From NCBI RefSeq assembly GCF_016412875.1, contig NZ_JAEKPD010000002.1, positions 62,001-126,000 on the forward strand: a stretch of 64,000 bases of DNA, read 5' to 3'. The stretch comes from Palleronia pontilimi. Lineage in GTDB: Bacteria > Pseudomonadota > Alphaproteobacteria > Rhodobacterales > Rhodobacteraceae. A program made the position numbers and the translations under genes. A model generated the notes under the pieces. That model was given only the letters and a program-made list of their open reading frames with translations. It ran no database searches and was not told where the DNA came from. Positions 5,947-61,317 of this stretch are shown one piece after another (within the stretch, counting starts at the first letter, position 1; the number at the start of each line of letters is the position of its first letter).

Positions 5947-5972
5947 GGATATTTGGAAGAACAAAGATGGGG
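5947..5972 (+). repeat. Dispersed intergenic repeat, copy A (between edd and eda)
   Basis: GGATATTTG followed by a 6-base spacer and CAAAGATGGGG. The two halves form an imperfect dyad (ATATTTG against CAAAGAT, one mismatch). The same element occurs at 9131-9158, 9173-9202, 17818-17846 and 61291-61317. This copy lies inside the probable edd-eda transcript. Confidence 0.8.
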
Positions 5973-5983
5973 CAGGGCGCGGG

Positions 5984-7789
5984 TCAGACCACCGTGCCCG
6001 CCCCCTGGCTGGCCAGGCCCACATTTTGGCGGAAGACCTCGAAGAGCTCGCGTCCGACGCCGTGGCCGTTGTCGCTGAGATCCGCCTTGACCGCATCGCG
6101 CGCGTCGAGATCCACGCCCAAGGCGTCCAGCGTGCCCTTCGTGGCATCCACGCGCACCACGTCGCCGTCGCGCAGCTTGGCGATGGGCCCGCCCAGTTCC
6201 GCCTCGGGCGAGACGTGGATGCAGGCGGGCACCTTGCCGGACGCGCCGGACATGCGTCCGTCGGTGACCAGCGCCACGTTCAGGCCCTTGTCCTGGAGGT
6301 TGGCCAGAAGCGGGGTCAGCGAATGCAGCTCGGGCATCCCGTTGGCGCGCGGGCCCTGGAAGCGGACGACAACGACGGTGTCTTCGGTGATCTCGCCCGC
6401 CTTGCAGGCCGTCTTGACGCTTTCCTGGTCGTGGAAGATGCGGCAGGGGGCTTCGATCACGTGGTATTGCTCTTTCACGGCCGAGATCTTCATGGCGCCG
6501 CGCCCGAGATTGCCCTTGAGATCCGCAAGCCCGCCGGTGCGCTGGAACGGATCGGAGGCGGGGCGCAGGATCTTGTCGTTCTGTGTGCTGCGATCGGCGT
6601 CTTCCCAGGTGATTTCGCCGTTCTTCAGCTTCGGCTCTTTCACGTAATCCTTCAGCCCGTCGCCCATGACGGTCAGGGTGTCGTCGTGCAGCAGGCCTGC
6701 ATCCAGCAGCTCGCCGATCATGTAGGTCAGGCCCCCCGCCGCGTGGAAATGGTTCACGTCGGCAAGGCCGTTGGGATAGACCTTGGCCATGAGCGGCACC
6801 GCGGCCGAGATGTCGGCGAAGTCCTCGAGATCCAGTTGCACGCCCGCGGCGCGCGCCATGGCGGGTAGGTGGATCAGCAGGTTGGTGGACCCGCCGGTGG
6901 CCATGAGCCCGACGATGCCGTTCACGAAGGCCTTTTCGTCCAGCACCTGTCCAGCGGGGCGGTAATCGTTGCCCATTTGGGTGATCTGGGTGGCGCGCTG
7001 GACCCCCGCCACGGTGAGCGCGTCCCGGAGCGGTGTGTTGGGGTTGACGAAGCTGGCGCCGGGCAGGTGCAGGCCCATGAACTCCATCAGCATCTGGTTC
7101 GAGTTCGCGGTGCCGTAGAAGGTGCAGGTGCCGGGTCCGTGGTAGGATGCCATTTCGGCCTTCATCAGCGCGTCGCGGCCCACTTCGCCGGCGGCGAATT
7201 GCTGGCGCACGCGCGCCTTTTCGTCATTGGGCAGGCCCGACGTCATGGGACCCGCGGGCAGGAAGACGGCCGGGATGTAGCCGAAGGTGGCGGCACCGAT
7301 CACGAGGCCCGGCACGATCTTGTCGCAGACGCCCAGGTAGAGCGCCGCGTCGAAGACGTTGTGGGACAGCGCGACACCCGCGGCCAGCGCGATCACGTCG
7401 CGCGAGAACAGCGAAAGCTCCATCCCGACCTGGCCTTGGGTCACGCCGTCGCACATGGCGGGCACGCCGCCCGCGACCTGCGCCGTGGCGCCCGCGTCGC
7501 GCGCGGCCTGGCGGATCAGCTCGGGGAAGCGTTCGAACGGCTGGTGGGCCGACAGCATGTCGTTGTAGGCGGTGACGATGCCGATATTGGGCTGGTTTTC
7601 CGTGGCCAGTTTCGACTGGTCCTGTCCGGCGCCCGCATAGGCGTGGGCCTGGTTGCCGCAGGTCAGGTGGGCGCGGCGCGGGCCGTCTTCGGCGGCGCGG
7701 GCCATGCGGTCGAGATAGGTGGCGCGGCTGTCCTTCGAGCGCTCGACGATGCGGGCGGTGACGTCGGCGATGGTGGCGTGCAGGCTCAT
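5984..7789 (-). CDS. edd: 6-phosphogluconate dehydratase
   Basis: Dehydrates 6-phosphogluconate to KDPG, the first committed Entner-Doudoroff step, using a [4Fe-4S] cluster. The 601-aa protein is full length for the IlvD/Edd family. Fe-S ligand cysteines are visible at C113 (MCDGVTQGQ) and C155 (GVCDKIVPG). TGGSTN near residue 290 and [10 protein letters not shown] near 508-518 are further family signatures that separate Edd/IlvD from other dehydratases. Pairing with eda, rather than branched-chain genes, supports Edd over IlvD. Transcription probably starts at the promoter at 7826-7854, whose spacer holds a perfect LacI-type palindrome, suggesting sugar-responsive repression. Confidence 0.95.
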
Positions 7790-7825
7790 GGCGTGACCTC
7801 TTCTGTGCGGGATCCCGTATCTCGT

Positions 7826-7854
7826 AACATAGCGCAGGTAGCGCTACCAGCCAA
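7826..7854 (-). promoter_or_regulatory. edd-eda promoter candidate
   Basis: On the minus strand TTGGCT (7854-7849) is followed, after exactly 17 bases, by TATGTT (7831-7826), about 40 bp upstream of the edd ATG. The spacer is occupied by the operator at 7837-7848. Confidence 0.6.
7837..7848. promoter_or_regulatory. LacI-family-type operator in the edd promoter
   Basis: GGTAGCGCTACC is a perfect 12-bp palindrome with the central CG typical of LacI-family operators (family knowledge). It sits wholly within the -35/-10 spacer, where a bound repressor would exclude RNA polymerase. No LacI-family gene lies in this window, so the regulator must be encoded elsewhere. Confidence 0.65.
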
Positions 7855-7901
7855 AGCCCGAGGACTTTTCAAGCCCGCGCGTCTGACCTATGGGCTGCGG
7901 T

Positions 7902-9095
7902 ATGACAGATCAGACCCTTCCCGTCGTGCGGCTCAGGCCCAAGGCCAATGCGCGCGCCATCCGCCATGGCTTCCCGTGGGTGTTCGCCAACGAACTGGTG
8001 GTGGACCGCCGCACGGGCGCCCTGGAAGCGGGAACCATCGCGGTGCTCGAGGATGCCGAGCGCACCCCCATGGGACTGGTCGCGGTGAATCCGGGCTCGA
8101 AGATCATCGCGCGGATGCTCGAACGCGATACCGGCGCGCGCATCGATCGCGACTGGCTGGCCGCGCGGATCGCGCGGGCCCAGGATCACCGTGCCCGGCT
8201 TTACGATGCGCCATTCTACCGGCTGGTCCATGCCGAGGCGGATGGTCTTCCGGGCGTGGTCATCGACCGGTTCGGCGATGCGGCGGTGATCCAGCCGAAT
8301 GCCGCCTGGTCCGAGCGGCTGCTCGACGACCTGGTCGCGGCACTTTGCGAGGTGACGGGCGTCACTTGCGTGGTCAAGAACGCCGCGGGGCGCGCGCGGG
8401 GGCTCGAAGGCCTGGACGAGGACAGCCGCGTGGTGCGCGGGGCGCTGGACGGGCCGGTTCCGGTGGCGATGAACGGCGCCACGTACCTGGCCGACCTGGC
8501 CGGTGGACAGAAGACGGGGCTTTTCTACGACCAGCGCGACAACCATGCCTTCGCGGCCAGGCTGGCGCAGGGCGCGCGGGTGCTCGACGTGTTCTCGCAT
8601 GTGGGCGGCTTCGGGCTAGCCTGCCTTGCGGGCGGGGCCGCGCGGGCGCTTTGCGTGGACGGTTCGGCGCCCGCGCTTGACCTGGCGCGGGCGGGGGCCG
8701 CGGCGGGGGACGTGGCCGAGCGGCTCGAGACGCGGCAGGGCGACGCATTCGCGGTGCTGGAAGACCTGGGCCGAGCGGGGGAGAGCTTCGATGTCGTCAT
8801 CTGCGATCCCCCCGCCTTTGCCCCGTCGAAATCGGCGCGCGAGGCGGGATTGCGCGCCTACGAGCGTGTCGCCCGCCTGGCCGCGCCGCTGGTGACGCGG
8901 GGGGGCTACCTGGGGCTGTGTTCGTGCTCGCACGCGGTCGACCTGCAATCCTTCAGGAACGCTTCCGCGCGCGGGATCGGGCGCGGCGGTCGGCGGGCGC
9001 AGCTCATCCACACGGGCTTTGCGGGACCGGACCATCCGCAATTGCCGCAACTGGCCGAAACGGGGTATTTGAAAGCCCTGTTCTTCCGGGTGTGA
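7902..9095 (+). CDS. Class I SAM-dependent rRNA methyltransferase (RlmI-like)
   Basis: A 397-aa protein with an N-terminal PUA-like RNA-binding domain (about residues 8-80; RLRPKANARAIRHGFPWVF at the start). A central EEHEI-like region follows, then a C-terminal Rossmann methyltransferase. The SAM loop is VLDVFSHVGGFGLAC near 231-245, and the catalytic-type DPPAFAPSK motif lies near 300-308. This is the RlmI/RlmK-like architecture, so methylation of 23S rRNA C5-cytosine is a reasonable inference. The conserved C-terminal cysteine region (LCSCSHAVD, about residues 341-349) is present. I preferred the second in-frame ATG at 7902 because it leads straight into the domain. The next 35 bp carry repeat copies B and C. 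Confidence 0.85.
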   Translation: MTDQTLPVVRLRPKANARAIRHGFPWVFANELVVDRRTGALEAGTIAVLEDAERTPMGLVAVNPGSKIIARMLERDTGARIDRDWLAARIARAQDHRARLYDAPFYRLVHAEADGLPGVVIDRFGDAAVIQPNAAWSERLLDDLVAALCEVTGVTCVVKNAAGRARGLEGLDEDSRVVRGALDGPVPVAMNGATYLADLAGGQKTGLFYDQRDNHAFAARLAQGARVLDVFSHVGGFGLACLAGGAARALCVDGSAPALDLARAGAAAGDVAERLETRQGDAFAVLEDLGRAGESFDVVICDPPAFAPSKSAREAGLRAYERVARLAAPLVTRGGYLGLCSCSHAVDLQSFRNASARGIGRGGRRAQLIHTGFAGPDHPQLPQLAETGYLKALFFRV

Positions 9096-9130
9096 GCCGC
9101 ACCGGGCGGGCCGCATGGTCGCAGGTCATG

Positions 9131-9158
9131 CCGGATATTTGTGAGAACAAAGATGGGG
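9131..9158 (+). repeat. Dispersed intergenic repeat, copy B
   Basis: CCGGATATTTG, spacer TGAGAA, CAAAGATGGGG. It pairs with the inverted copy C just downstream to form a long near-perfect stem with a loop of about 15 bases, located between the methyltransferase stop and the PIN gene start. Confidence 0.8.
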
Positions 9159-9172
9159 AAGGGCGCGCTTTT

Positions 9173-9202
9173 GCCCATCTTTGTTCTTCTCAAATATCCC
9201 GG
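9173..9202 (-). repeat. Dispersed intergenic repeat, copy C (inverted)
   Basis: The reverse-complement orientation of the same element: CCCATCTTTG, then TTCTTCT, then CAAATATCCCGG. Together with copy B it could act as a strong hairpin terminator or attenuator, but there is no U-run after it. It ends 20 bp before the GTG start of the PIN gene. Confidence 0.8.
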
Positions 9203-9222
9203 CGCACCGGGGTGCCAGGGGC

Positions 9223-9765
9223 GTGACGGTGGTGTGTCTGGATGCCTGCGTTCTTTATCCGACCGTGCTGCGCGAGATCCTGATGGGCTGCGCCGCGCGG
9301 CGGCTTTTTCGGCCCGTCTGGTCACCGCGCATCCTTGAGGAATGGGCCCGCGCGACCCGCAAGCTGGGACCCGGGGCCGAGGACGTGGCGCGCGCCGAGA
9401 TCGCCCTGCTGCGCGACCGGTGGCCCGGCAGCGAGGTGACGCCACGGGCCGGGGACCTGGTGCGATTGCATTTGCCGGATGCCGACGACGTCCACGTGCT
9501 GGCCGCCGCGATCGCGGGGCACGCCGAAATCCTGTGCACGTTCAACGCGAAGGATTTTCCCAGGGGCATCCTGGAGCAGGAAGGGCTGCGCAGGCTGGAT
9601 CCGGACCAGCTGCTTCGCGGCTTGCTCGACCGGGACGCCTGGGCCGTGCGCGACGTGGTGACGGGCGTTCACGCGACGGCCGAGCGGTTGTCGGGCGAAG
9701 TCCTGCCGCTGCGCGAACTGTTGAAGCGGGCGCGGTTGCCCAAGATCGGAAAGGCGCTGGGCTAG
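9223..9765 (+). CDS. PIN-domain protein without an evident antitoxin
   Basis: A 180-aa PIN-fold putative ribonuclease. The first acidic residue is in VVCLDACVLYPT (residues 3-14). A second acidic patch is LPDADDVHVLAAAI near 85-98, and NAKDFP near 109-114 gives the last conserved Asp. These fit the metal-binding residues of PIN nucleases. The GTG at 9223 was chosen because the PIN strand beta-1 begins there; an earlier start would translate through repeat copy C. There is no small partner gene on either side, unlike a VapBC pair, so this may be a solitary PIN enzyme rather than a toxin. Its stop shares the palindrome CTAG with the convergent M48 gene. Confidence 0.75.
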   Translation: MTVVCLDACVLYPTVLREILMGCAARRLFRPVWSPRILEEWARATRKLGPGAEDVARAEIALLRDRWPGSEVTPRAGDLVRLHLPDADDVHVLAAAIAGHAEILCTFNAKDFPRGILEQEGLRRLDPDQLLRGLLDRDAWAVRDVVTGVHATAERLSGEVLPLRELLKRARLPKIGKALG

Positions 9766-10445
9766 GCGCGCAGCCACTTGGCTTCGTTGGCCTCGATGGC
9801 GGCGACACGCTCGGCGGTCTTGGGGTGGCTCAGCAGCCAGGCGGGCGCCGTGCCTGAATTGCCGGTCAGCGCGTCGAGCTTGGCGAAGAGCGATTTCTGC
9901 CCGGCCGAGCCGATACCGGACTTGATCAGAAGCGCCGTGGCATAGGCATCGGCTTCGTATTCGTCGCCGCGCGACAGCCCGGCGGCCAAGAGCGAAGCCA
10001 GCGCGTTGGCGATCATCACGCCGATCCCGGGAATGAACCGCCCCAGGATCATGATTAGGGCCGTCCGCAGCGCGTTCTGGCCCGAGAAGTCGATCATCCG
10101 GCGCCGCGAATGGCCCAGCGCCACGTGGCCCAGTTCGTGGGCGATGACCGACGCCAGCTCCGCGCCCGTCACCTCGCCCGACCGGTATTTTTGGTAGAAT
10201 CCGCGGGTGATGAAGATGCGCCCGTCGGGGGCGGCCAGGCCATTCACCGGGTCGATTTCGTAGATGTGGACCTTGATCCGCTCCAGGTCGAGCGCGGCGG
10301 CCATGCGGTCGGTCAGCTCTTTCAGCTGCGGATCGGCCAGCTCGGTGGACTTGGCGTCAAGCTCTTTCGAGGTGCGCCAGACCGAAAAGCGGTACATCGC
10401 AAGCCCGTAGAGGATCGCCAGCAGGATCGGGGTAAACTTCAGCAT
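9762..10445 (-). CDS. M48 family metallopeptidase (membrane-anchored)
   Basis: A 227-aa zinc peptidase. The N-terminal hydrophobic stretch (about residues 4-19) is a membrane anchor or uncleaved signal. The zinc motif HELGH is at 103-107, and the third ligand Glu164 is in DEYEADAYA, as in HtpX/Oma1/LoiP relatives. LSHPKTAERVAAI near residue 207 is the usual M48 C-terminal block. It probably takes part in envelope or membrane protein quality control; a substrate cannot be named. It lies downstream of the DEAD-box helicase on the same strand with a 45-bp gap, and its stop codon overlaps that of the convergent PIN gene in a shared CTAG. Confidence 0.88.
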   Translation of the reverse strand: MLKFTPILLAILYGLAMYRFSVWRTSKELDAKSTELADPQLKELTDRMAAALDLERIKVHIYEIDPVNGLAAPDGRIFITRGFYQKYRSGEVTGAELASVIAHELGHVALGHSRRRMIDFSGQNALRTALIMILGRFIPGIGVMIANALASLLAAGLSRGDEYEADAYATALLIKSGIGSAGQKSLFAKLDALTGNSGTAPAWLLSHPKTAERVAAIEANEAKWLRA

Positions 10446-10490
10446 GCCCCGAATGTGGGGTGTGCGGCCCCCAAGCGCAATGCGGCAAAG

Positions 10491-12494
10491 TCAGCGCGGT
10501 TTGCGCTTGGGCGTGTCGTTTCCCGATGGCCGCTTGCCTTTCGGTCCGGGCTTTCGGGGTTTGCCGCCCTTGCCGCCGGGACGCTCCATCCGTTGCGACG
10601 GATCGGCGGCACCTTTGCGGAAGGTCTTGGCGGGGCTGGCGGGTTTGGCGGCGTCCGGGCGCTTTGCCTTGGGCTTCGCGGGCCGTGTGTCGGGCGCGGG
10701 CTTCACGCCGCCATCGCGGGTGGGGTCGACCGGCGCGGGCTTGTCGAAGCGCGGCTTCGGCTTGGGCTTGGGCGTGTCGGAGGGATGCCAGTCCGCCTTG
10801 GCGGGCTTGGGCTTGCGCGGTTTGCGCTCGGGCATCGCGGCGTCGGCCTGGGGCGCCGGATCGCGGCGCGGGCGCTCGGGCTTCGGGCCACGCGCGGGGG
10901 CGGCAGAGTGGGCGGAACGCTCGGGCGGGGCGTCCATCTGGCGCGCGGTCACGCCCTTTTCGACCTCGCCGCCATCGCCCAGCGCGGAGAGGAACCCGGG
11001 CAGGGCCGAGGCGAGCAGTTCCACGTGGGTTTCGGACGGTTGCACCCGGATCGCGCCGATCTGCGACTTGTCGAGATTTCCCGCGCGGCACAGGAGCGGC
11101 AGGATCCAGCGCGGCTCGGCCCGGTCGTTGCGGCCGACCGACAGGGCGATCCAGGCCGACGGTCCGAAGGGCGCGCGGTCGCGCGGCTCGGGGCGGGTGT
11201 CGGGGGGCGACAGGTCTTCGGGGGCCGAGATCGCGCGGCGATGCAGGCGCAGGAACGCGGCGGCGATGGTTTCGGGCGCGTGCAGGTCCAGCAGGGTGGC
11301 GGCGAAGGCGCGTTCGTCGCCGGTGATCTCGTCGGTCCAAAGGGGATCGGCCAGCAGGCGCGCTTCGTCGGCGCGCAGCACGTCGTCGGCACCGGGCGGT
11401 ACGGTCCATTCGGCGGTGATGCGGGCGAATTTCAGCAGGCGTTCTGTCTTTTTCACCGCCTTGGGCGGCACGATCATGGCCGAGATGCCCTTGCGTCCCG
11501 CGCGTCCCGTTCGGCCGGACCGGTGCAGCAGACCTTCGGCATTGGACGGCAATTCGGCGTGGATCACCAGTTCCAGGTTGGGCAGGTCGATCCCGCGGGC
11601 GGCCACGTCGGTGGCCACGCAGACCTGCGCCCGTCCATCGCGCATGGCTTGCAGCGCGTGGGTGCGTTCGGTCTGCGACAGCTCGCCCGACAGGCTGACG
11701 ACGCGAAAGCCGCGGTTCGACAGGCGCGCGGTCAGGCGGGCCACGGTGGCGCGGGTGTTGGCGAAGACGATGGCATTGGCCGCATCGTGGAAGCGCAGCA
11801 CGTTGACGATGGCGTTTTCCGCATCGCTTTGGGCCACGCGCAGGGCCTGGTAGGTGATGTCGGCGTGCTGCGAGCCCTTGGACACGGTCGAAATGCGGGT
11901 CGCGTCGCGCTGGTAGGTTTCGGCCAGGCGCGCGATCTGTGGCGGCACGGTGGCCGAGAACAGCAAGGTGCGGCGTTCGGGCGGCGCTTCGCCCAGCATG
12001 AATTCGAGATCCTCGCGGAAGCCCAGGTCCAGCATCTCGTCCGCTTCGTCCAGCACGATGGCGCGGATCGACGACAGGTCGAGCGAGCCGCGCGCGATGT
12101 GGTCGCGCAGCCGGCCCGGCGTGCCGACGACGATATGGGCGCCGCGTTCCAGGGCGCGGCGTTCGTCGCGCATGTCCATGCCGCCCACGCAGGACACCAC
12201 GCGGGCTCCGGCCTGGGCGTAGAGCCAGGTCACCTCGCGCATGACCTGCAGCGCAAGCTCGCGGGTGGGTGCGACGATCAGCGCGAGCGGGGCGGCGGCG
12301 GGGGGCAGCGCGTCGGCATCGCCCAGCAGCGTGTTGGCGATGGCCAGGCCGAAGCCCACCGTCTTGCCGGACCCGGTCTGCGCCGAGACTAGCAGGTCCG
12401 CGTCCGAAAGCGACGGGTCTGCGACCGCCTGTTGCACCTCGGTCAAAGTGTCATAGCCCCGCTGGGCGAGGGCGGCCTGAAGTGTCGGGTGCAT
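10491..12494 (-). CDS. DEAD-box RNA helicase, CsdA/DbpA-like, with long basic tail
   Basis: An ATP-dependent RNA helicase, 667 aa. Motif I AQTGSGKT ends at Lys44-Thr45, motif II DEAD is at 149-152, motif III SAT is near 180-182, and motif VI HRSGRTGRAG lies near 320. A DbpA-type RNA-binding region, about residues 430-500, contains a VGRNDRAEPRWILPLL stretch. The last 150 or so residues are low-complexity and rich in Lys, Arg and Pro (KPKPKPRFDKP, GKGGKPRKPG), probably an RNA-binding tail. Roles in ribosome assembly or cold adaptation are known for the family. The ATG at 12492-12494 was chosen over an in-frame start 16 codons upstream because the Q-motif region begins here. Confidence 0.9.
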   Translation of the reverse strand: MHPTLQAALAQRGYDTLTEVQQAVADPSLSDADLLVSAQTGSGKTVGFGLAIANTLLGDADALPPAAAPLALIVAPTRELALQVMREVTWLYAQAGARVVSCVGGMDMRDERRALERGAHIVVGTPGRLRDHIARGSLDLSSIRAIVLDEADEMLDLGFREDLEFMLGEAPPERRTLLFSATVPPQIARLAETYQRDATRISTVSKGSQHADITYQALRVAQSDAENAIVNVLRFHDAANAIVFANTRATVARLTARLSNRGFRVVSLSGELSQTERTHALQAMRDGRAQVCVATDVAARGIDLPNLELVIHAELPSNAEGLLHRSGRTGRAGRKGISAMIVPPKAVKKTERLLKFARITAEWTVPPGADDVLRADEARLLADPLWTDEITGDERAFAATLLDLHAPETIAAAFLRLHRRAISAPEDLSPPDTRPEPRDRAPFGPSAWIALSVGRNDRAEPRWILPLLCRAGNLDKSQIGAIRVQPSETHVELLASALPGFLSALGDGGEVEKGVTARQMDAPPERSAHSAAPARGPKPERPRRDPAPQADAAMPERKPRKPKPAKADWHPSDTPKPKPKPRFDKPAPVDPTRDGGVKPAPDTRPAKPKAKRPDAAKPASPAKTFRKGAADPSQRMERPGGKGGKPRKPGPKGKRPSGNDTPKRKPR

Positions 12495-12684
12495 GGGGAT
12501 CGATCCGTTTGGTCCGCGACGCGCGGAGGGCGCAGCGTCCATAGGCGCGACGCGCCGGGAAGTATAGGGGGAAACCGACGCTGCCTGCGTGCGGAGACAG
12601 GAACGCCGCCCCCGTTGCCGGGGACGGCGCCTCGCCGCTCACTTGTTACAGATGATACCTAACGCGGCGAGCTCGTGGCGGTGG

Positions 12685-13113
12685 TCAGACCATCTTCGCG
12701 TCCATCGTGATCTCGGCACCGGCCAGCACCTTGGAGACGGGGCAGCCTTCCTTGGCGGCCTGGGTCGCCGTGTCGAACTGTTCCTGGGTCGCGCCGGGAA
12801 CCGAGCCGGTGACGTCCAGGTGGATCTTGGTGATCGCGAAACCACCGTCGACCTCTTCCAGCGACACCGTCGCCTTAGTGTCGATGTTGTCGGGCGTCAG
12901 GTCGTGCTGGCCCAGGATCATGCTGAGTGCCATGGAAAAGCACGCGGCATGTGCGGCGCCGATCAGCTCTTCGGGGTTGGTGTTGGTGCCGCCCTCGAAC
13001 CGCGACTTGAAGCCGTAGTTCTGCTTGTCGAGCACGCCGGTTTGCGTGGAAACGATGCCGGTCCCCTCTTTCAGGGGGCCTTTCCAGTTTGCGGTGCCAT
13101 GCTTCTTGATCAT
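12685..13113 (-). CDS. osmC: OsmC family peroxiredoxin
   Basis: A thiol peroxidase for organic hydroperoxides, 142 aa, full length. The redox cysteines are Cys58 in HAACFSMALS and Cys124 in EGCPVSKVL, and PEELIGAAHAACFS is the classic OsmC (not Ohr) signature. EVDGGFAITKIHL in the middle is also OsmC-like. It is divergent from an OhrR-type MarR regulator; the shared 178-bp gap holds overlapping promoter-like elements around one dyad, so peroxide-sensitive repression is the likely control. A near-190-bp non-coding gap (12495-12684) separates it from the helicase; I see no convincing terminator there. Confidence 0.92.
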   Translation of the reverse strand: MIKKHGTANWKGPLKEGTGIVSTQTGVLDKQNYGFKSRFEGGTNTNPEELIGAAHAACFSMALSMILGQHDLTPDNIDTKATVSLEEVDGGFAITKIHLDVTGSVPGATQEQFDTATQAAKEGCPVSKVLAGAEITMDAKMV

Positions 13114-13204
13114 TAGTGTCTCCTTGTTCGAAATGCGTTGCGGTCCCGGAAACGCAGCGCTTTTGTCTTGTGTTCCCGCTTCAGGGTGCGGGGCGCAGAA
13201 ATAA

Positions 13205-13235
13205 GTTTACGCGATATTGTCGTAAACGATATAAG
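13205..13235. promoter_or_regulatory. Divergent osmC/ohrR promoter region with OhrR operator candidate
   Basis: GTTTACG (13205-13211) and CGTAAAC (13221-13227) form a perfect 7-bp inverted repeat around a 9-base centre. On the plus strand TTTACG, 18 bases and TATAAG (13230-13235) read as a promoter for ohrR; on the minus strand TTTACG, 17 bases and TATTTC read as one for osmC. Binding at the dyad would control both. Confidence 0.6.
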
Positions 13236-13291
13236 TTCAGGCGCGGAATGTCAAGGTTGCGATCTGATCGCGCGCGATCTATTTTCGCGGC

Positions 13292-13738: not shown

Positions 13739-13751
13739 TCGCGGAGCGGCC

Positions 13752-15229: not shown

Positions 15230-15239
15230 CGCGCCTGCC

Positions 15240-17817: not shown

Positions 17818-17846
17818 CCCCATCTTTGTTCTTGCAAATATCCCGG
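17818..17846 (-). repeat. Dispersed intergenic repeat, copy D
   Basis: CCCCATCTTTG, spacer TTCTTG, CAAATATCCCGG: the same element as at 9173-9202. It lies between the moxR stop (17884) and the start of the AEC transporter gene. Confidence 0.8.
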
Positions 17847-17883: not shown

Positions 17884-18723
<840 letters not shown>

Positions 18724-18754
18724 GCCTGCGCTGTCCTGCCTGTGTGTCGCGCGG

Positions 18755-18783
18755 ACCATAGGCGCCCCGCAAATCGGCCGCAA
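18755..18783 (-). promoter_or_regulatory. moxR promoter candidate
   Basis: On the minus strand TTGCGG (18783-18778) and TATGGT (18760-18755) are separated by exactly 17 bases, about 30 bp upstream of the moxR ATG. The same -35 hexamer recurs in the candidate promoters at 28812 and 35612. Confidence 0.45.
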
Positions 18784-18800
18784 CCAATGCAACATGGCGC

Positions 18801-18829
18801 GTGACAACGGAAAGTCCATGGGGTATCCC
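18801..18829 (+). promoter_or_regulatory. dksA promoter candidate
   Basis: GTGACA (18801-18806) and TATCCC (18824-18829) lie 17 bases apart, 66 bp upstream of the chosen dksA start. A small dyad (TCGGG 18861-18865 against CCCGA 18872-18876) follows in the leader. Confidence 0.45.
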
Positions 18830-18894
18830 CGCCCCAAGACGTAGCCAGTGGGACGACAATTCGGGCACAGACCCGAGGTTTTGGGGAGATGGAT

Positions 18895-19317
18895 ATGAAG
18901 GTAGAAACCTTTATCGCGGATGAGTATCGACCGGCCGAGGGCGAGCCGTTCATGAACGAACGCCAGCTGGAATATTTCCGCCGCAAGTTGCAGGACTGGC
19001 GGAGCGACCTGCTGGACGAAAGCCGCAGCACCATCACCGGTCTGCAGGACGGCACGCGCAACATTCCCGACGTGGCCGACCGCGCCTCCGAAGAAACCGA
19101 CCGCGCGCTTGAACTGCGCACCCGCGACCGCCAGCGCAAGCTGGTCGCCAAGATCGACGCGGCGCTGCGGCGCATCGACGACGGCGAATACGGCTATTGC
19201 GAAGTGACGGGCGAGCCGATCTCGCTGAAGCGGCTGGACGCGCGTCCCATCGCCACGCTGAGCCTGGAAGCGCAAGAGCGCCACGAGCGCCGCGAGAAAG
19301 TGCACCGCGACGACTGA
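18895..19317 (+). CDS. dksA: RNA polymerase-binding transcription factor DksA (single-cysteine type)
   Basis: Modulates rRNA and amino-acid promoters with ppGpp through the RNA polymerase secondary channel. The 140-aa product has the coiled-coil with the tip motif DxxDxA (D59-V-A-D62-R-A64), required for activity. The zinc-finger region YGYCEVTGEPISLKRL keeps only one of the four canonical cysteines (C102), as reported for Rhodobacter-type DksA. The ATG at 18895 was preferred over 18889 because the GGGGAG Shine-Dalgarno directly abuts 18889 but is well spaced for 18895. A strong intrinsic terminator follows at 19346. Confidence 0.93.
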   Translation: MKVETFIADEYRPAEGEPFMNERQLEYFRRKLQDWRSDLLDESRSTITGLQDGTRNIPDVADRASEETDRALELRTRDRQRKLVAKIDAALRRIDDGEYGYCEVTGEPISLKRLDARPIATLSLEAQERHERREKVHRDD

Positions 19318-19373: not shown

Positions 19374-19391
19374 GCATTGGGGGCAGCGGTC

Positions 19392-51939: not shown

Positions 51940-51986
51940 CTTGCACGCGACCTAGCGCGGATGCCTGTCAGGGGAAAGCCGGGTGA

Positions 51987-52015
51987 TTGACGCCGCCCAC
52001 GCCGCTTTGTAGCGC
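51987..52015 (+). promoter_or_regulatory. Class V aminotransferase promoter candidate
   Basis: TTGACG (51987-51992) and TAGCGC (52010-52015) separated by exactly 17 bases, 29 bp upstream of the ATG at 52045. Confidence 0.5.
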
Positions 52016-52044
52016 TGGGCGGCCCACGTGAAGGAGCCCGCCCC

Positions 52045-53223: not shown

Positions 53224-53279
53224 GCATCGGCCACGCGTGTTTGAAAATCCGTGATGCCGGGGGTGCCCTGCGCGGGCGA

Positions 53280-53447: not shown

Positions 53448-53483
53448 GGGGGCGATGTTAGCCGGGCGGATGTGGCTGTCACG

Positions 53484-54596
53484 TTACTTTTTCGTGCGCG
53501 CCGTCTCGAGCGCGACGGGCAGCGCCTGGGCGAACACGTTCATCGCGTCGTCGGGACCGCAGGTGACGCGGATGCAGCGATCCAACGGGGCCGCGCCGGG
53601 CATGCGGATGAAGACCCCCCGTTCGCCCAGGGATTGCAGGACGGCGCGGGCGAAATCGCCGTCGCGGCCGCAATCGATGGTGACGAAATTGGTGGCGGTC
53701 GGAAGCGGTGCCAGGTCGTTCGCGCGCGCGATTTCGAAAATGCGATCAACGCTTTGCGCGATCTTCTTCAGAACGTCGTTCAAGTGGTCTGTATCCGCCA
53801 GCGCCGCGATCGCGCCCGCCGCGCTGATGCGCGAGACGCCGAAATGGTTGCGCACCTTGCCGAACGCGCCGATCAGGGATTGCGGCCCGATGGCGTAGCC
53901 GATCCGCGCACCGGCCATCCCGTAAGCCTTTGAAAAGGTGCGGAAGCGGATCACGTTCGGATGGTCGGGCTGCAGCGGCGGCGTCGTGTCGGCGTCGGAG
54001 CATTCGGCATAGGCCTCGTCCAGCACCAGCACGCAGGTGTCGGGGATCCGGTCGATAAACGCCGAGATGTCGGATGACGTATGCCAGGACCCCATGGGGT
54101 TGTCAGGGTTGGAAAGGTAGATGAGCTTCGCGCGCGTCTCGACCGCCTTGTCCAGAAGGGCGTCGAGGTCTTCGTGATTGCCCGCGTACGGCACCTTGTG
54201 GAGGGTTCCGCCATAGCCCGTGACATGGTAGTTGAAGGTGGGATAGGCGCCGTCGGACGTGACCACGGCATCGCCCGGGGCCACCAGAAGCCGCACGGTC
54301 GAGCCCAGCAGCCCGTCGATCCCCGCGCCGGTGACGATATGTACGGGATCACATGAAAGATGCGATGCAAGGGCCTGTTTCAGGTCGAAATATTCCGGAT
54401 CCGGATACTTCCAGACATCGTGTGCCGCGCGCTTGATCGCGGCGATCGCCTTGGGGCTGGGGCCGAAGGTCAGCTCGTTCGCGCCCAGCCGCGCGCGGAA
54501 CGCGCCACCCGCCCGACGCTCTTGGGTCTCGGGACCCACGAAGGGCACCGTGTCGGGCAACGCGGCCGCCAGAGGGGTCAGGCGCGGATCGCTCAT
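53484..54596 (-). CDS. Histidinol-phosphate aminotransferase family protein
   Basis: A 370-aa PLP enzyme of the HisC/threonine-decarboxylase-like branch. [18 protein letters not shown] near 37-54 is the HisC-type substrate region, [11 protein letters not shown] near 161-171 the PLP Asn region, VLDEAYAEC near 189-197 the PLP Asp, and [20 protein letters not shown] near 217-236 the Schiff-base Lys with the following Gly-Ala-Arg. It acts either in histidine synthesis or as an aromatic/other aminotransferase; no other his gene is near. Its ATG overlaps the valS stop (ATGA), so it is coupled to valS. Family is secure, substrate uncertain. Confidence 0.85.
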
Positions 54597-57500
54597 AATT
54601 CGGCAAGCCGTGCCTGGGCGGTTTCAAGGCGTTGCTTTTCCTCGGATTTCTCGGCCACAAGCGCCTTGGTTTCGTCCACGACGTCGTCCGGGGCCGAGGC
54701 CAGGAACTTCGGATTCTTCAGCCGCCCGTTCAGACCGCCCAGATCCTTTTCCAGCTTACCCAGCGTCTTGGCCAGCCGGGCCTTTTCGGCTTCGACGTCG
54801 ACGATTCCGGCCAGTGGCAGGGCGAATTGCCCGCCGCGCACGGAGATCGTCAGCGCACCTTTCGGCGGCGCGTCGGCCCGGGTCAGTCGCTCCACGCGCG
54901 CCAGCCGCTGGATCATCGCGGCGTTGCGATCCCAGGCGGTGCGGCCAGCGGCGTCCAGCTCGATTTCCAGGAGCTCGACCTTCAGGGCAGCGGGCACGTT
55001 GACTTCGCCCCGGACCGAGCGGATCGCCTCGATCAGCGAAATGACCCAGGCGATTTCCGCGCTGGCATCCGCGTCGGTCACATCCGCGGTGGCGTAATCG
55101 GGCCAGTCGGTGACGGCCAGAAGATCGGGGCCCGCCCACAGCTCTTCGGTGACGAAGGGCATCATCGGGTGCAGCAGGAGCAGGCATTGATCGAGCACCC
55201 AGGCCATGGTCGCCTGCGTCTCGGCGATCAGGTCCGCGTCTTCGGATCCGAACAGCGGTTTCGAGAATTCCAGGTACCAGTCGCAGACCACGTTCCAGAC
55301 GAACTTGTAGATCGCGTCGGCGGCGTCGTTGAACTTGAAGGCTTCCAGCGCCGCGTCCACCTCGTCGCGGGTGCGGGCCGTTTCGCCCATGATCCAGGCG
55401 TTGACCGTCGCGCGCGGCTTGGGCGGCGCGGCGGCGCGGTGCTGCAGGGCGTCGTTCATCTCGGCGAAACGGAACGCGTTCCAGAGCTTCGTGGTGAAGT
55501 TGCGGTAGCCCTCGATCCGCTTTTCGTCCAGCCGGATGGTGCCGGTCATCGACGCCATGGCGGCGTTGTTGAAGCGGTAGGCGTCGGCGCCGTATTTATC
55601 CACCAGGTCCAGCGGATCGACCACGTTGCCGATGGATTTCGACATCTTCTGGCCCTTCGCGTCGCGGACGAGGCCGTGCAGATAGACGGTGTCGAAGGGG
55701 CGTTGGCCCACCACCGCGTATTGCATCATCATCATCCGGGCGACCCAGAAGAACAGGATGTCTGAGCCGGTGATCAGCACGGATGTGGGGAAATACCGGT
55801 CCATGAAGCTTTGGTCGTCGTCGCCCCAGCCCAGCGTGCCGATGGGCCAGAGACCCGACGAAAACCACGTGTCGAGCACGTCGGGATCGCGCCAGACCGG
55901 ATAGACCAGGTGCGTGGGATCCTGGCTGGTGACATATTCGGCAAGGCTTTCCGACAGGCGGTGCAACGCTTCGTCGCGGGTCGCGACCTCGACCACCGAT
56001 GCGTGGTTCAGCGGCGTGGGCAGATCGGCCAGCATGTCGCCGAACGTGTCCTTGACGGCCGTGAAATCGGGCGCGCAATGGGGGCGCAGATCGCCGTTGG
56101 CCAGGCTGTCGGAGGACAGGATGCGGCCGAGCTCGACCTCGTCGAGCGCGCCGTCGCCTTCGTCATCGGTGAAGCCGTTGGCGTGCAGATCGAAGCCGTA
56201 CCAGACCGGGATCTGGTGACCCCACCACAGCTGGCGCGAGATGCACCAGGGCTCGATGTTTTCGAGCCAGTGGAAATAGGTCTTTTCGCCCGATTCCGGG
56301 ATGATCTTGACCTCGCCCGAGCGCACGGCCTCGAGCGCGGGGCCGACGATCTGGGCGGTGTCGACGAACCACTGGTCGGTCAGCATCGGCTCGATCACGA
56401 CTTTCGAGCGGTCGCCGAAGGGCTGCATGATCGGCTTGCTTTCCACCAGCGGGGTCAGCTGTTCCAGCCGTCCTTCGCCGCCCTCTTCGGGCGCCAGCGG
56501 CTTCGCGGGCTCGCCCAGGCGCGGATCGGTGGGCGGCACCATGACGGCAAGCCCTTCCTCGGTGATCTGTGCGACAACGCGGTTGCGGGCTTCGAACCGA
56601 TCGAGGCCGCGCAGGTCGTCGGGCACCAGGTTCAGCGCGTCGGCCTCGGTTTCGCCCAGCGTACGGTCGCCCTTCGCCACCGCCATGGCGATCTCGGCGG
56701 CCTCGGCGTAATCCACGCCGTCGTCGCGCATGTGACCCTTCGTATCCATCAGCCGGTACATCGGGATGTCGCCGCGCTTGGCGACCTCGTAGTCGTTGAA
56801 ATCATGCGCGCCGGTGATCTTCACCGCGCCGCTTCCGAAATCGGGATCGGGGTATTCGTCGGTGATGATCGGGATCAGGCGGCGATGTTCCTTCGGACCC
56901 ACCGGGATTTCGCAGAGCTTGCCCACGATGGGCGCATAACGCGGGTCATCCGGATGGACCGCCACCGCACCGTCGCCGAGCATGGTTTCGGGGCGGGTGG
57001 TGGCGATCGAAATGTAGTCGCGGACCTCTTCGAACAGGACGTTCCCGTCCGCGTCCTTTTCGACGTAGGTGTAGGTGGCGCCGCCCGCGAGGGGGTACTT
57101 GAAGTGCCACATGTGACCGGGCACTTCGCGGTTCTCGACCTCGAGATCGCTGATCGCCGTTTCGAAATGCGGATCCCAGTTCACCAGCCGCTTGCCACGA
57201 TAGATGTAGCCCTTGTCGAACATATCGACGAAGACGCGGATCACGGCGTCGTGGAAATTCGGGCCATCCTCGGGCGACGGATCGCCGGGCGCGCCCTGCA
57301 TGGTGAACGCCTCGCGCGACCAGTCCATGGAGCAGCCCAGCCGCTTGTCCTGCTCGACGATCTGGCCGCCGGACGTGGCCTTCCAGTCCCACACCTTGGC
57401 GATGAAATCCTCGCGGCTCAGGTCGGTGCGCTTGATGCCCTGTTCGGCCAGCTGCCGCTCGACCACCAGCTGCGTGGCGATGCCCGCGTGGTCCAGCCCC

Positions 57501-57742
57501 GGCTGCCACAGCGTGTCGTCGCCGCGCATCCGGTGCCATCGCGTCAGGATATCCATGAGCGTGTGGTTGAAGCCGTGCCCCGCGTGCAGGAACCCCGTGA
57601 CGTTGGGCGGCGGCAGCAGGATCGAGAAGGCGGACGCGCCGGGCTTGGCGTTGGCCCCCGCCGTGAAGCAGCCCGCGTCCTTCCACTTGGCGAAGATCTC
57701 GGGCTCGCGCGCGGCGGCGTCGAAGGATTTTTCCATGGGCAT
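54593..57742 (-). CDS. valS: Valyl-tRNA synthetase
   Basis: Charges tRNAVal. The 1049-aa class I enzyme contains the HIGH-type HAGH at 53-56 ([14 protein letters not shown]), an editing (CP1) domain with [19 protein letters not shown] near 243-261, and KMSKS in [14 protein letters not shown] near 695-710. The C-terminal coiled coil ([20 protein letters not shown] near residue 990) is a ValRS hallmark. The ATG at 57740-57742 has an AAAGGA Shine-Dalgarno; an ATG two codons later is the alternative. It is divergent from the CoxL-like gene, with a 145-bp gap. The N-terminal extension of the longer open frame is unsupported. Confidence 0.95.
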
Positions 57743-57887
57743 GAGGGCGGCGTCCTTTGGGTCAAACTTGCCCGTCGGGATAGCCAAATCGGCGGCCAAG
57801 GGGAAGGGCGGGGGATGGGGCGATATGGCACTGGAAAATCCCGGTGCGTTGGCTAGTGTCGGCGCGAATTCTGCGAAGGGGACGCAC

Positions 57888-60191
57888 ATGGACAATTTCG
57901 GCAAAAGCCAGTCGGTGACGCGCCGCGAGGACCAGCGCCTGGTCACGGGCCACGGCCGCTACGTGGACGATATCGCGCCCGCGGATGCGCTCTTTGCCGG
58001 GTTCGTCCGGTCCCAGGTGGGGCACGCGAAGCTGGGGTCGGTCGACGTGCAGGACGCCGCCGCCATGCCCGGCGTCGTGGCGGTGCTGACGGCCGCCGAC
58101 ATGCTGGCCATGGGCGCGTCGCTGGGGATGGACTACACCCGCGTGCCCACGCTGGATGGCGGAAAGGGCACGGCGCCCGAGCGTCCGTTCCTGGCCCATG
58201 ATCGCGTGCGCTTCGTGGGCGAGCCCGTCGCCGTGGTGCTGGCCGAAACGCAAGCGCAGGCCATCGAGGCCGCCGAGGCGGTGATAGTCGACTACGACGA
58301 ACTGCCCGCCCACATGGACCTGGCGACGGGTGGCGAGGCGCTGCATGACGAGGCCCCCGACAATCTGGCCTTCGATTACGGCAAGGGCGACGAGGCGGGC
58401 TGCGCGCGCGCCTTTCGCGACGCGGCCCACACCGTGAAGCTGAAGATCGAGGACAACCGCATCATGGTCTCGTCCATGGAAGGGCGCGGCTGCTGGGCGG
58501 AATGGGCCGAGGACCGGCTGCATGTCTGCTTTTCGGGCCAAGGGGTCTGGGGTCTGAAATCCGAGCTGGTGAATCGGTTCGGCCTTGATCCAAGCCAGGT
58601 CCGCGCCACCACGCCCGACGTGGGCGGCGGCTTCGGCATGAAAGGTTTCAACTACCCCGAATATTTCGCCGTGGCGGGGGCCGCGATGAAGCTGGGCCGC
58701 CCGGTGCGCTGGATGTCGGACCGGACCGAGGCGATGCTGTCGGACAACGGGGGCCGCGACCTTGTCCACGTGGCCGAGCTGGCCTTCGACGAGAACCTGA
58801 AGATCACCGCCTACCGCGTTGAGAATACGTGCAATATCGGCGCCTACAATTCGATGTTCGCGCAGATGATCCAGACCGAGCTCTTCAGCCGCGTCCTGAT
58901 GGGCACCTACGATGTGCAGACCACGTGGCTGCGCACCCGCGGCATCTATACCAACACCGCGCCGGTCGATGCCTATCGCGGCGCGGGGCGGCCCGAAGCG
59001 ATCTTCACGCTCGAACGCATCCTGTCGCGCTCCGCGCGAGAGCTGGGCGTCGACCCGCACGAGCTGCGCCGCCGCAATTTCATCAAGGCGGATCAGTTTC
59101 CCTACGTCTCGGCCACCGGGGAGACCTACGATGTGGGCGATTTCCACGCCACGCTGGCCAAGGGGGAAGCCTTGGCGGACATGGCCGGATTCGCCGCGCG
59201 CAAATCCGACAGCGCCGCGCGCGGAAAGCTGCGCGGCATCGGCACCTGCTACTACATCGAATCGATCCTGGGCGCGCCCGACGAGCACGTGAAGATCGCG
59301 TTCAACGACGACGGTACGGCGTCGATCTTCGTGGGCACCCAGTCGAACGGGCAGGGGCACGAGACGGTCTTTCCGCAGTTCCTGTCGGATCACACCGGTA
59401 TTCCGGTGGACAAGATCGCCTTCGTGCAAGGCGATTCGGACCTGATCGCATCGGGCGGCGGCACCGGTGGCTCGCGCTCGGTCACGGTGCAGAACAACGT
59501 GACGCTGAAGGCCGCGCGCGCAATGATCGACGATTTCGCGGCGTTCCTGGCCGACGAACTTGGCGCCAAGCCCGACGATGTCAGCTTCGACGACGAGCGC
59601 TTCCGCGTCGAGGGCTCGAACGAGACGCCGACCATGCTCGACGTGGCCGCCATGGCGCGCGCGGCGGGACGCACTGACCTGTTGACCCGCACGGCCCACG
59701 AAAAGCTGCCGGGACGTTCATATCCCAATGGCGTCCATATAGCCGAGGTCGAGATCGACCCCGAGACCGGCGAAACAGAGGTCGTGAAATACACCGTCTG
59801 CGACGATTTCGGCAATCTCATCAATCCCATGCTGGCCGAAGGTCAGGTGCATGGCGGCGTCGTCCAGGGCATCGGCCAGGCTATCCAGGAACGCGTGGTC
59901 TATGACGAACACGGCCAGCTTCTGACCGCCAGCTACATGGATTACGGGGTGCCGCGCGCCGTGGACGTGCCGATGTTCCGCTTCGACACGAACCCCGTGC
60001 CGTCGACCGCCAATCCCATGGGCATGAAGGGCTGCGGCGAGGCGGGCACGGTGGGTGCGCTGGCCGCCGTGTCCAACGCCGTGGAAGACGCGCTGTGGGA
60101 ACGGGGCGTGCGGCAGGTCGATCTGCCCTTCACCCCGGCGCGCGTCTGGGATCTTCTGACGGCCGAGAGCCATGCCCACGCCGCCGAATGA
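57888..60191 (+). CDS. Molybdenum hydroxylase large subunit, form II CoxL-like
   Basis: A 767-aa catalytic subunit of the xanthine oxidase family, which binds Mo-molybdopterin. The active-site loop AYRGAGR (about residues 362-368) is the form II (BMS) type, not the form I AYRCSFR of true aerobic CO dehydrogenases. GGFGMKG near 247 and [10 protein letters not shown] near 714-723 (catalytic Glu) are the remaining cofactor motifs. The ATG at 57888 has an AAGGGG Shine-Dalgarno at a 7-base spacing. Neither a FAD (medium) nor a 2Fe-2S (small) subunit gene is adjacent. It overlaps the DUF2235 gene by 20 bp. The substrate is unknown. Confidence 0.85.
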
Positions 60192-61281
60192 GGACCGCCG
60201 CCCGCGCATAAACACGGGCGGCCTGCTGCGGCGCGGCCTGGCGTGGCTGGGCCGCGGGCGGGTCGTCCAGCAGACCAACATGCCGATCCATCGTGGTCCG
60301 GTGACCCACGTCATCATCCTGGACGGCACCATGTCGTCGCTGGAGCCCGGGCGCGAGACGAACGCGGGTCTGACCTGGCGGCTTCTGTCGGAAATGGCGC
60401 CCGCCGCCCACATGTCCCTGAAATACGAGCCCGGTATCCAGTTCACGTCGTGGCGCCAGGTCCGCGACGTGGCCGAGGGGCGTGGCCTGAACCGCCAGAT
60501 CCGCCGCGCCTATGGCTGGCTTGCCTCGCGTTACCGGCCCGGCGATCGGATTTTCCTGTTCGGCTATTCGCGCGGCGCCTATGCGGTGCGCTCGCTGGCG
60601 GGTGTCATCGACCGGGTGGGCCTGCTACGGGCCGACGCCGCCACCGAGCGCAACGTCCGCCTGGCCTATCGCTATTACCGCACGATCCCCGACAGCTTCG
60701 GCGCGCAGGAGTTCAAGCGGCTGTTCTGCCACGAAGCCGTCGAGGTGCAGATGGTCGGCGCCTGGGACACGGTGAAGGCGCTGGGTTTGCGCCTGCCGAT
60801 CCTGTGGCGCTGGTCGCGCATCGCCCACAGTTTCCACACCCACGGGCTGGGCCCGACAACGCGCGCGGGCTTCCACGCCCTGGCGCTGGACGAAACGCGC
60901 GAGGCCTACGCCCCGGTGCTCTGGCGGCTCGACGGCGACTGGGACGGGATCTGCGAGCAGGTCTGGTTCCGCGGCACCCATGGCGATGTGGGCGGCCAGC
61001 TCGATGGCGTGCGCGCGGCGCGTCCCTTGGCCAATATCCCGCTGGTCTGGATGCTCGGCAAGGCCGAAGAGCAGGGCCTGCCCTTGCCGGAAGGCTGGCG
61101 CGCCCGCTTCGGCTGCGATCCGCACGCGCCGTCCATCGGGGTCAACCGCGGCTGGGGCCGGATCTTCGTGGCCCGCGGGCCGCGATCCATCGGGGCCGAC
61201 CGGTCGGAGCGGTTGCATCCCACAGCGCTCGAACGGGGCGCCTTGCGCAACGAGGCCAAGGGACTGCCCTTCGCCGAGTAG
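60172..61281 (+). CDS. DUF2235 alpha/beta-hydrolase-like protein
   Basis: A 369-aa protein of the DUF2235 family, which includes Tle1-type phospholipase effectors. The nucleophile elbow GYSRGAYAVRSLAG near residues 130-143 fits GxSxG. A catalytic Asp in VGAWDTVKALG near 197-207 and a His in FRGTHGDVGGQL near 266-277 would complete the triad. A basic N-terminus (RRGLAWLGRGR, residues 20-30) lacks a signal peptide. No type VI secretion gene is nearby, so effector status is not supported. It starts 20 bp inside the CoxL-like gene's end, so translation is probably coupled. Confidence 0.82.
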   Translation: MPTPPNEDRRPRINTGGLLRRGLAWLGRGRVVQQTNMPIHRGPVTHVIILDGTMSSLEPGRETNAGLTWRLLSEMAPAAHMSLKYEPGIQFTSWRQVRDVAEGRGLNRQIRRAYGWLASRYRPGDRIFLFGYSRGAYAVRSLAGVIDRVGLLRADAATERNVRLAYRYYRTIPDSFGAQEFKRLFCHEAVEVQMVGAWDTVKALGLRLPILWRWSRIAHSFHTHGLGPTTRAGFHALALDETREAYAPVLWRLDGDWDGICEQVWFRGTHGDVGGQLDGVRAARPLANIPLVWMLGKAEEQGLPLPEGWRARFGCDPHAPSIGVNRGWGRIFVARGPRSIGADRSERLHPTALERGALRNEAKGLPFAE

Positions 61282-61290
61282 CGCGCGCCT

Positions 61291-61317
61291 GCATCTTTGT
61301 TCTCGAAAATATCCCGG
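61291..61317 (-). repeat. Dispersed intergenic repeat, copy E
   Basis: GCATCTTTGTTC, then TCGA, AAATATCCCGGC: a fifth copy of the element seen at 5947, 9131, 9173 and 17818, with slight divergence. It lies 10 bp after the DUF2235 stop, between convergent genes. Confidence 0.75.

What the first reader, a model, noticed from the sequence alone, without database searches (positions are those of the whole stretch)
5947..61317. Five copies of a previously unlabelled dispersed dyad motif
A roughly 28-bp element, GGATATTTG followed by 6-7 bases and CAAAGATGGG, appears at 5947, 9131, 9173, 17818 and 61291. Each copy is an imperfect palindrome (ATATTTG against CAAAGAT, one mismatch). All lie between genes, never inside one, and the AT-rich cores contrast with the GC-rich genome. 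Chance cannot explain five near-identical copies. It is either a mobile-derived repeat family (REP-like, MITE-like) or a binding site for a nucleoid or regulatory protein.
Basis: partly seen in the sequence, partly recalled or inferred. Interest (0 to 1): 0.7.

Follow-up and report, generated by a model that had tools for sequence, protein, structure and literature searches.

The report
Genome-specific repeat at gene ends
The five short repeats are real and belong to a set of more than fifty in this bacterium; relatives carry the same kind of element at the ends of genes, in their own spellings, and selection appears to keep it there, although what reads it is unknown.

Summary
The five window copies belong to 53 strict copies in the genome (reversed-pattern control 0), from a genus that includes Palleronia caenipelagi. 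They are one dialect of an element seen in many genomes of the same family. Anatomy: GC-rich front, GG(A)TATTT, a free 2-3 base spacer, a purine-rich tail. Tails differ between genomes while the same front modules recur. Of 134 intergenic copies placed in seven genomes, 126 lie in gaps with a gene 3' end, against 76 of 120 background gaps. Between two sister species 26 of 28 checked sites are occupied in both; at the other two homology breaks off and no counterpart was seen. In 25 aligned pairs the core differs at 1.4% of positions, near flanks at 7.4%, spacer at 10.9%. This argues for selection on the core and against gene conversion. The REP/RAYT hallmark is missing. Copies lie on the G-rich strand in 127 of 160 cases, but composition alone predicts 103. 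Most likely this is a protein-read, two-way gene-end (terminator or insulator) site; that step is inferred.

The parts
5947..5971 (+). copy 1, in the 67-bp gap between edd (5984-7789, -) and eda (5275-5916, -); opposite to both genes
9133..9157 (+). copy 2, left member of a tail-to-tail inverted pair, behind a SAM methyltransferase-domain gene (7890-9095, +)
9174..9199 (-). copy 3, right member of the inverted pair, before a PIN-domain gene (9223-9765, +); spacer one base longer
17819..17843 (-). copy 4, about 40 bp behind the stop of an AAA ATPase-domain gene (17884-19305, -), same orientation as that gene
61293..61314 (-). copy 5, between convergent genes: Tle1-like phospholipase-domain gene (60172-61281, +) and thioesterase-superfamily gene (61341-61853, -)

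Best explanation
The repeat is a gene-end element: a roughly 25-bp sequence-specific core, GGATATTT-NN-R-AGAACAAAGATGGGG in this genome, behind a GC-rich front that in several relatives is a hairpin or C-run. Shown: it is dispersed, lies at gene 3' ends, keeps its position between sister species, has a core more conserved than its flanks around a free spacer, and has tails that differ between genomes. Inferred: two half-sites separated by a free spacer are read by a trans-acting factor, most likely a DNA-binding protein that acts with the GC-rich front to stop or insulate transcription from both sides. Inferred: new copies arise by copying of a unit of about 60 bp, copies that serve a local gene end are retained, and the dialect follows the factor.
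For: Copy number 53 against control 0. Gap types in seven genomes: 72 co-directional, 54 convergent, 8 divergent, 3 inside an ORF (137 placed of 147), against 69/7/44 background gaps; Fisher p 8e-10 for gaps with a 3' end, 2e-11 for convergent gaps. Sister species G007/G013, 25 aligned pairs: core 6 substitutions in 425 positions (9/427, which also counts three gaps placed at the element's edge), flanks 97/1312 (p 7e-7), spacer 11/101 (p 0.24 against flanks), spacer unchanged in 17 of 25. A spacer that changes about as fast as the flanks argues against gene conversion as the keeper of the core. The same front modules join different tails in different genomes. In all 53 strict copies GAA stands before CAAAGAT although the pattern left those bases free. 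Inverted pairs occur.
Against: In this genome the front is no more structured than shuffles (z -0.2; -0.13); it is clearly so in G106 and G016 and weakly in G007 and G022. The T-stretch is short, and a scan of the first 20 kb finds no excess of terminator-like sites (11 against 10.7; one of the 11 lies in the inverted pair of copies 2 and 3). Orientation relative to the upstream gene is only mildly biased (49:23). Selection against insertion in promoters would also give a 3'-end pattern. No RNA data exist here and no factor is identified. Positions turn over within the genus: only 2 of 41 sister-species element loci share both neighbour genes with an element of this genome. Pairs entered the constraint test by an exact core in at least one genome, and fully identical core columns follow partly from the search pattern.
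Confidence: 0.42

Rival explanations
1. A REP-like or MITE-like family: non-autonomous repeats spread by a transposase-like enzyme, tolerated at gene ends, with no function for the host. The dialect is the sequence of each lineage's last active founder.
For: Fronts of 39-40 identical bases at different loci with unrelated surroundings; inverted pairs; avoidance of promoter-only gaps and genes; turnover between congeners; one G007 copy (L333) sits behind a gene whose G013 counterpart has unrelated sequence there.
Against: Core more conserved than flanks between orthologous sites; no clean empty site among 28 checked pairs; no Y1 transposase in this genome, nor in G009, G016, G022, and the element-rich G080, G089, G105, G106, G131, G150, G157, G168 are not among the 18 of 198 genomes with one; identical front modules with different tails are hard to get from single founders.
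Confidence: 0.25
2. A chromosome-organising or replication-oriented site (working like KOPS or other polar motifs): the element marks direction on the leading strand and is read by a translocase or nucleoid protein.
For: 127 of 160 copies lie on the strand with positive local GC skew: co-oriented 40/51, opposed 24/30, convergent 49/62, divergent 11/11, unplaced 3/6; 39 of 50 in this genome. In one near-complete genome (G022) 49 of 56 GGGATATTT sites follow the best two-arc split (0 of 5,000 shuffles as good). The 11 strict copies of G016 split perfectly (p 0.025).
Against: Composition alone predicts 103 of 160 (excess z 4.15), and in G022 13 of 16 are predicted against 15 seen. All 78 GGGATATTT sites of G016, and those of G092 and G026, show no polarity, though not all such sites are elements. 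The best-split arcs of G022 are unequal (1.52 and 2.04 Mb); nearly equal arms (1.76, 1.81 Mb) need a break that I placed by eye, with 48 of 56 then concordant. With that hand-placed origin there is no significant rise towards the terminus (KS p 0.24). Inverted pairs defeat polarity.
Confidence: 0.15
3. A DNA-uptake-like signal: species dialect kept by preferential uptake and recombination of same-locus DNA, with inverted pairs doubling as terminators.
For: Dialects, inverted pairs at gene ends, retained positions and core conservation with a free spacer are what uptake bias would give.
Against: Tens of copies, not thousands (passages of PMC3630211 give thousands, for example 2787 and 3603); one copy in 50 of this genome inside a reading frame, whereas uptake sequences are commonly intragenic.
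Confidence: 0.08

Closest known systems
REP elements with RAYT (REP-associated Y1 transposase)
   Same: short, intergenic, inverted pairs, avoids genes and promoter-only gaps, lineage-specific sequence (REP features recalled)
   Different: no Y1 transposase in this genome; core is a weak palindrome with a free spacer; core conserved more than flanks between orthologues
DNA uptake sequences of Neisseriaceae
   Same: genome-specific dialects, inverted pairs near gene ends (PMC3630211, passages)
   Different: tens rather than thousands of copies; hardly in coding sequence; no uptake data
Intrinsic (Rho-independent) terminators
   Same: gene 3' ends; GC-rich hairpin upstream of a short T-rich stretch in some genomes (G106, G016)
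   Different: about 20 bp of fixed sequence that a terminator does not need (recalled); front not more structured than chance in this genome; short T-stretch
KOPS / polar chromosome motifs
   Same: orientation tends to follow GC skew
   Different: about 60 copies of about 20 bp with dialects, against an 8-bp motif (abstract of PMC2680272 in the listing); part of the polarity follows from composition

Membership tests
REP/RAYT | short dispersed intergenic palindromic repeats, often paired | tested here: met
   the palindrome is weak
REP/RAYT | Y1 transposase (PF01797) in the same genome | tested here: not met
   none in G000; 18 of 198 family genomes have one, and by the patterns these hold at most 2 copies. 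Two of the 18, G092 and G177, have an excess of GGGATATTT (44 against 2, 61 against 10) that was not examined further. G007 and G013 were not in that sample
REP/RAYT | conserved tetranucleotide (GTAG/GGAG, recalled) beside the stem | tested here: inconclusive
   no invariant tetranucleotide in the left columns of G000; GGAG stands beside some fronts in G168
MITE | terminal inverted repeats and target-site duplication | not tested
   C-run and G-run flank the core in some genomes; no clean empty site was available to read a duplication
Intrinsic terminator | stable hairpin directly before a T-tract | tested here: inconclusive
   not in G000; upstream hairpins in G106 and G016, weakly in G007 and G022; T-stretch short
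DNA uptake sequence | very high copy number (thousands) | tested here: not met
   53 strict copies; comparison from passages of PMC3630211
DNA uptake sequence | promotes uptake of carrying DNA | not testable with these tools
   needs a transformation assay
KOPS-like polar site | orientation fixed by replichore | tested here: inconclusive
   excess over composition z 4.15, strong in G022, absent for all GGGATATTT sites of G016, G092 and G026
KOPS-like polar site | density rises towards the terminus (recalled) | tested here: not met
   one genome with a hand-placed origin: G022 quartiles 13, 12, 11, 20; KS p 0.24
Any Rfam RNA family | match to a curated model | tested here: not met
   Searches (window, gathering; 10 of the fetched loci, E up to 1): 0 matches

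The most novel reading that the evidence does not exclude
Members of this family share a modular gene-end element whose recognition half is rewritten genome-wide in each lineage while its front modules stay recognisable. An unidentified trans-acting factor reads it through two half-sites separated by a free spacer, acts at gene ends in step with replication direction, and co-evolves with all its sites.
Probability: 0.25. Interest if true: 0.82.

Novelty: new variant of a known kind. Interest (0 to 1): 0.58.

Why it matters
A constrained sequence at dozens of gene ends implies a factor that my searches did not name. The dialects give a natural experiment in how a factor and its many sites change together, and a concrete handle (core, spacer, front) for finding it in well-studied laboratory Rhodobacteraceae. 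It also bears on how transcription ends and gene boundaries are set in GC-rich alphaproteobacteria: in the 20 kb of the window scanned, terminator-like sites were no more frequent than in shuffles.

Tried and rejected
RNA hairpin as the conserved feature: rejected for the core and for the GC flanks. Gene conversion as the keeper of the core: rejected, because the spacer would change far faster than the flanks. RAYT: rejected for this genome. Phage origin: six viral contigs matched the core of this genome's form, but all six are AT-rich (30-37% GC) and look like chance, and the pattern GGATATTTNNGGCAAGATGAAG gave none. The plasmid search with this genome's form gave only poor matches (12 records). 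With a relative's form it gave 43 records, mostly Rhodobacterales; 36 of the 40 listed rows show no annotated feature under the match, but some of those records are almost unannotated. Outside the family the tail pattern occurs once each in 4 of the 140 other-family genomes. Papers: nine answered searches listed nothing on this element; I saw listings and abstract starts only. led to PMC3630211 (passages); PMC7901474 was read as passages. The library lacks most subscription papers, so absence from print is not shown.

My first gene finder put 7 of 51 copies inside genes; by my reading six of these were shadow frames or wrong starts running across a gap, and a retrained finder left one. The first automatic pairing of G007 and G013 copies was noisy and is not used for counts. 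A duplicate filter hid two copies (L341, L342), examined later. The core count (9/427) included three gaps at the element's edge; the recount is 6/425. Some fetched stretches (L338, L339) were wrongly predicted counterparts and were not used. Two copies of this genome (C64:174919, C64:179412) were never fetched.
Full report
WHAT IS THERE. Four of the five copies match the pattern exactly with 0 in 100 shuffles; the fifth differs at its right end. With up to 3 mismatches at the commonest spacing the window holds no further copy. In the whole genome (3.72 Mb, 64 contigs) GATATTT-N4..10-CAAAGAT occurs 53 times and its reversed control 0 times. GGATATTT alone occurs 106 times against 6 for the control. 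Column counts on 51 of the 53 copies (two copies not fetched) give GcgCCG-GGATATTT-NN-R-AGAACAAAGAT-GGGGcaGGGgC. The columns named in the search pattern are identical by construction. Not so the GAA before CAAAGAT, present in all 53, nor the flanking CCG (86-90%) and GGGG (78-100%). The bases right after GGATATTT are free. Flank signal fades within about 25 bp on the left and 14 bp on the right.

WHOSE GENOME. A same-genus genome, G001, is identical over 4,800 bp to Palleronia caenipelagi JBTF-M29 (loci). The window is therefore from a GTDB genus that includes that species; it was not identified to species.

A WIDER FAMILY WITH DIALECTS. The 13 same-genus genomes lack the strict form apart from one chance-like match. 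Of the 100 listed GGATATTT sites of the own genome, 50 are not strict copies; 21 of these were read in 20 stretches. Several are a second form, GGATATTT-NN-AAAAAGATGAAG; 10 are inside genes by my finder. The own genome has 10 copies of the second form by pattern, one of them a hybrid. In 198 family genomes the second form occurs in 32, with up to 76 copies (G168) and controls 0. Among the copies listed there, genomes with many copies mostly show one set of letters after the free pair (G168 and G106 GGCAAGATGAAG, G157 GCCAAGATGAAG, G150 GCGAAGATGAAG, G009 GGAAAGATGAAG); some with few copies, such as G189 and G035, are mixed, and the listing is capped. This genome's form occurs in 5 of 198: 56 in G000, 23 in G131, 14 in G105, 11 in G016, 1 in G230. 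Two sister species, G007 and G013, have 63 and 62 copies of GGTATTT-N1..8-AAAGATGAAG, nearly all listed as GGTATTT-NN-GGAAAGATGAAG. Outside the family, 4 of 140 genomes have one match each. A plasmid search with a relative's form hit 43 records, mostly Paracoccus, Leisingera, Tritonibacter, Ruegeria and kin.

MODULAR ANATOMY. Sampled copies from other genomes show GC-rich front modules before the core. Module M1 (ending GCCCCTCGCGCTCCCC) stands before 4 of 52 copies counted in G000, 2 of 25 in G007, 2 of 34 in G013, 3 of 19 in G106, 1 of 16 in G022 and 1 of 3 in G009. That count started from each genome's own tail. Starting from the module instead, all 13 M1 occurrences in the fetched stretches run into a core with that genome's tail; one of the four in G000 has a one-base departure. 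Module M2 (GCCTCCGGCG) is the main one in G168 (13 of 19) and G131 (7 of 10) and also occurs in G016, G022, G106 and G013. From the module side, 2 of 6 in G016 and at least 1 of 11 in G168 run into other tails, and not all were printed. Most fetched stretches were chosen because they hold a copy, so these counts are not a genome survey. In G000, 44 of 52 copies carry none of the modules tested. In G013 three copies share the same 39 bases to the left of the core, and in G007 two share 40. The 40 bases beyond are 17-38% identical, and the bases to the right of the core 23-28%. This marks a unit of about 60 bp and points to copying.

GENE CONTEXT. With the retrained gene finder, 137 of 147 copies in seven genomes were placed: 72 in co-directional gaps, 54 in convergent, 8 in divergent and 3 inside a predicted gene. 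Background gaps in the same loci were 69, 7 and 44. The excess at gene 3' ends has p 8e-10 and in convergent gaps p 2e-11. Some G013 copies are orthologues of G007 copies, so the samples are not fully independent, and 9 of 10 G131 copies could not be placed. One inside case is the last codons of an ATPase gene; the two in G007 were not examined. In co-directional gaps 49 of 72 read in the direction of the genes (p 0.003). My gene finder is simple and uncurated.

POSITION AND CONSTRAINT. For G007 against G013, 25 orthologous sites were found by flanking sequence; all are occupied, 19 with both cores exact and 6 with one base changed in one genome. One further pair is also occupied, with one core base changed. 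Two further G007 copies lack a counterpart in the fetched G013 stretch. Behind the gene next to L333 the G013 sequence is unrelated, and at L341 homology begins only 383 bases to the right. So 26 of 28 are occupied and none is a clean empty site. For 12 G013 copies and one other G007 copy no counterpart was among the fetched loci. Differences over the 25 pairs: left flank 43/666, right flank 54/646, spacer 11/101, core 6/425 (p 7e-7 against flanks). Spacer against flank p 0.24. Five of the six changed pairs were fetched because one genome lacked the exact core, which raises the core figure; requiring an exact core in at least one genome lowers it. If conversion among copies kept the core uniform, the spacer would be replaced much faster than the flanks; it is unchanged in 17 of 25 pairs. 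All three core changes on the G013 side of these pairs are the same, TATTT to TACTT. Over a longer span positions turn over: of 41 G007/G013 element loci (three are orthologous pairs) tested against 70 G000 loci, 8 share any neighbour gene and 2 share both neighbours with a G000 copy between them. In the edd-eda gap only 1 of 13 congeners (G008) has a clear element by my reading, while 7 of 80 named relatives have GGATATTT within about 70 bp behind edd. On the megaplasmids of Tritonibacter mobilis F1926 and A3R06 and of Ruegeria TM1040, two element-like sites lie at the same place in all three; one differs only in the spacer, the other also in the tail.

STRUCTURE. The core alone barely folds, and the left front of G000 copies is no more stable than shuffles. 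Left and right GC flanks pair no better within a copy than between copies. Upstream hairpins are clear in G106 and G016 and weak in G007 and G022. The terminator scan of the first 20 kb finds 11 sites against 10.7 in shuffles.

POLARITY. Copies lie on the strand of positive local GC skew in 127 of 160 cases: genes co-oriented 40/51, opposed 24/30, convergent 49/62, divergent 11/11, unplaced 3/6. Coding balance does not explain it (slope 0.009 +- 0.009). In G022, 49 of 56 GGGATATTT sites follow the best two-arc split, and 16 of 20 sampled sites there are true elements. Against this: a G-rich motif is expected more often on the G-rich strand, and composition alone predicts 103 of 160 (z 4.15). 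In G016, G092 and G026 all GGGATATTT sites together show no polarity. The best-split arcs of G022 are 1.52 and 2.04 Mb; the near-equal arms used for the gradient test rest on a break placed by eye. Skew in the own genome is weak. Polarity is therefore a lead, not a result.

MECHANISM. Shown: dispersed, copied as a unit in at least some cases, gene-end located, retained between sister species, core more conserved than flanks around a free spacer, tails that differ between genomes. Inferred: a factor reads two half-sites; the element stops or insulates transcription from either side; the dialect follows the factor. Not shown: any transcript end, any protein. The main rival is a REP-like family without host function, weakened by the constraint and by the missing Y1 transposase.

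NOVELTY. No Rfam family matches in the window or in 10 of the fetched loci, and nine answered searches of a partial open-access library listed nothing on it. It is filed as a new variant of short dispersed intergenic repeats.

Noticed in passing
G013 loci L324, L325, L327 against G007 loci L309, L332, L334: All three core changes on the G013 side are the same base (TATTT to TACTT), which could be a dialect shift under way.
   Followed up: no
window 60172-61281 (+): Gene with a Tle1-like phospholipase catalytic domain of the type VI secretion effector kind (Pfam PF09994) beside copy 5.
   Followed up: no
G000 contigs C1 and C12: Copies cluster: all 11 of C1 lie in its first 300 kb of 572 kb, all 6 of C12 in its first 130 kb of 458 kb (limits chosen after seeing the data); cause unknown (chromosome zone or replicon type).
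   Followed up: partly
L280 and L281 at 20010 and 20056 (Paracoccus versutus, P. ferrooxidans): Two elements in direct tandem 46 bp apart, shared by both plasmids, which are 99.2% identical over 25 kb there.
   Followed up: no
L117 (G000 C56:24533): A hybrid copy (this genome's core with the second-form tail AAAGATGAAG) lies in the last codons of an ABC-transporter ATPase reading frame.
   Followed up: partly
G022 C3:840399: The one sampled element on the 'wrong' strand of its arc lies in a stretch whose local GC skew is also reversed, as if inverted together.
   Followed up: no
G092 and G177: Both have an excess of GGGATATTT (44 against 2, 61 against 10) and a Y1 transposase; whether their sites are this element was not read.
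   Followed up: no
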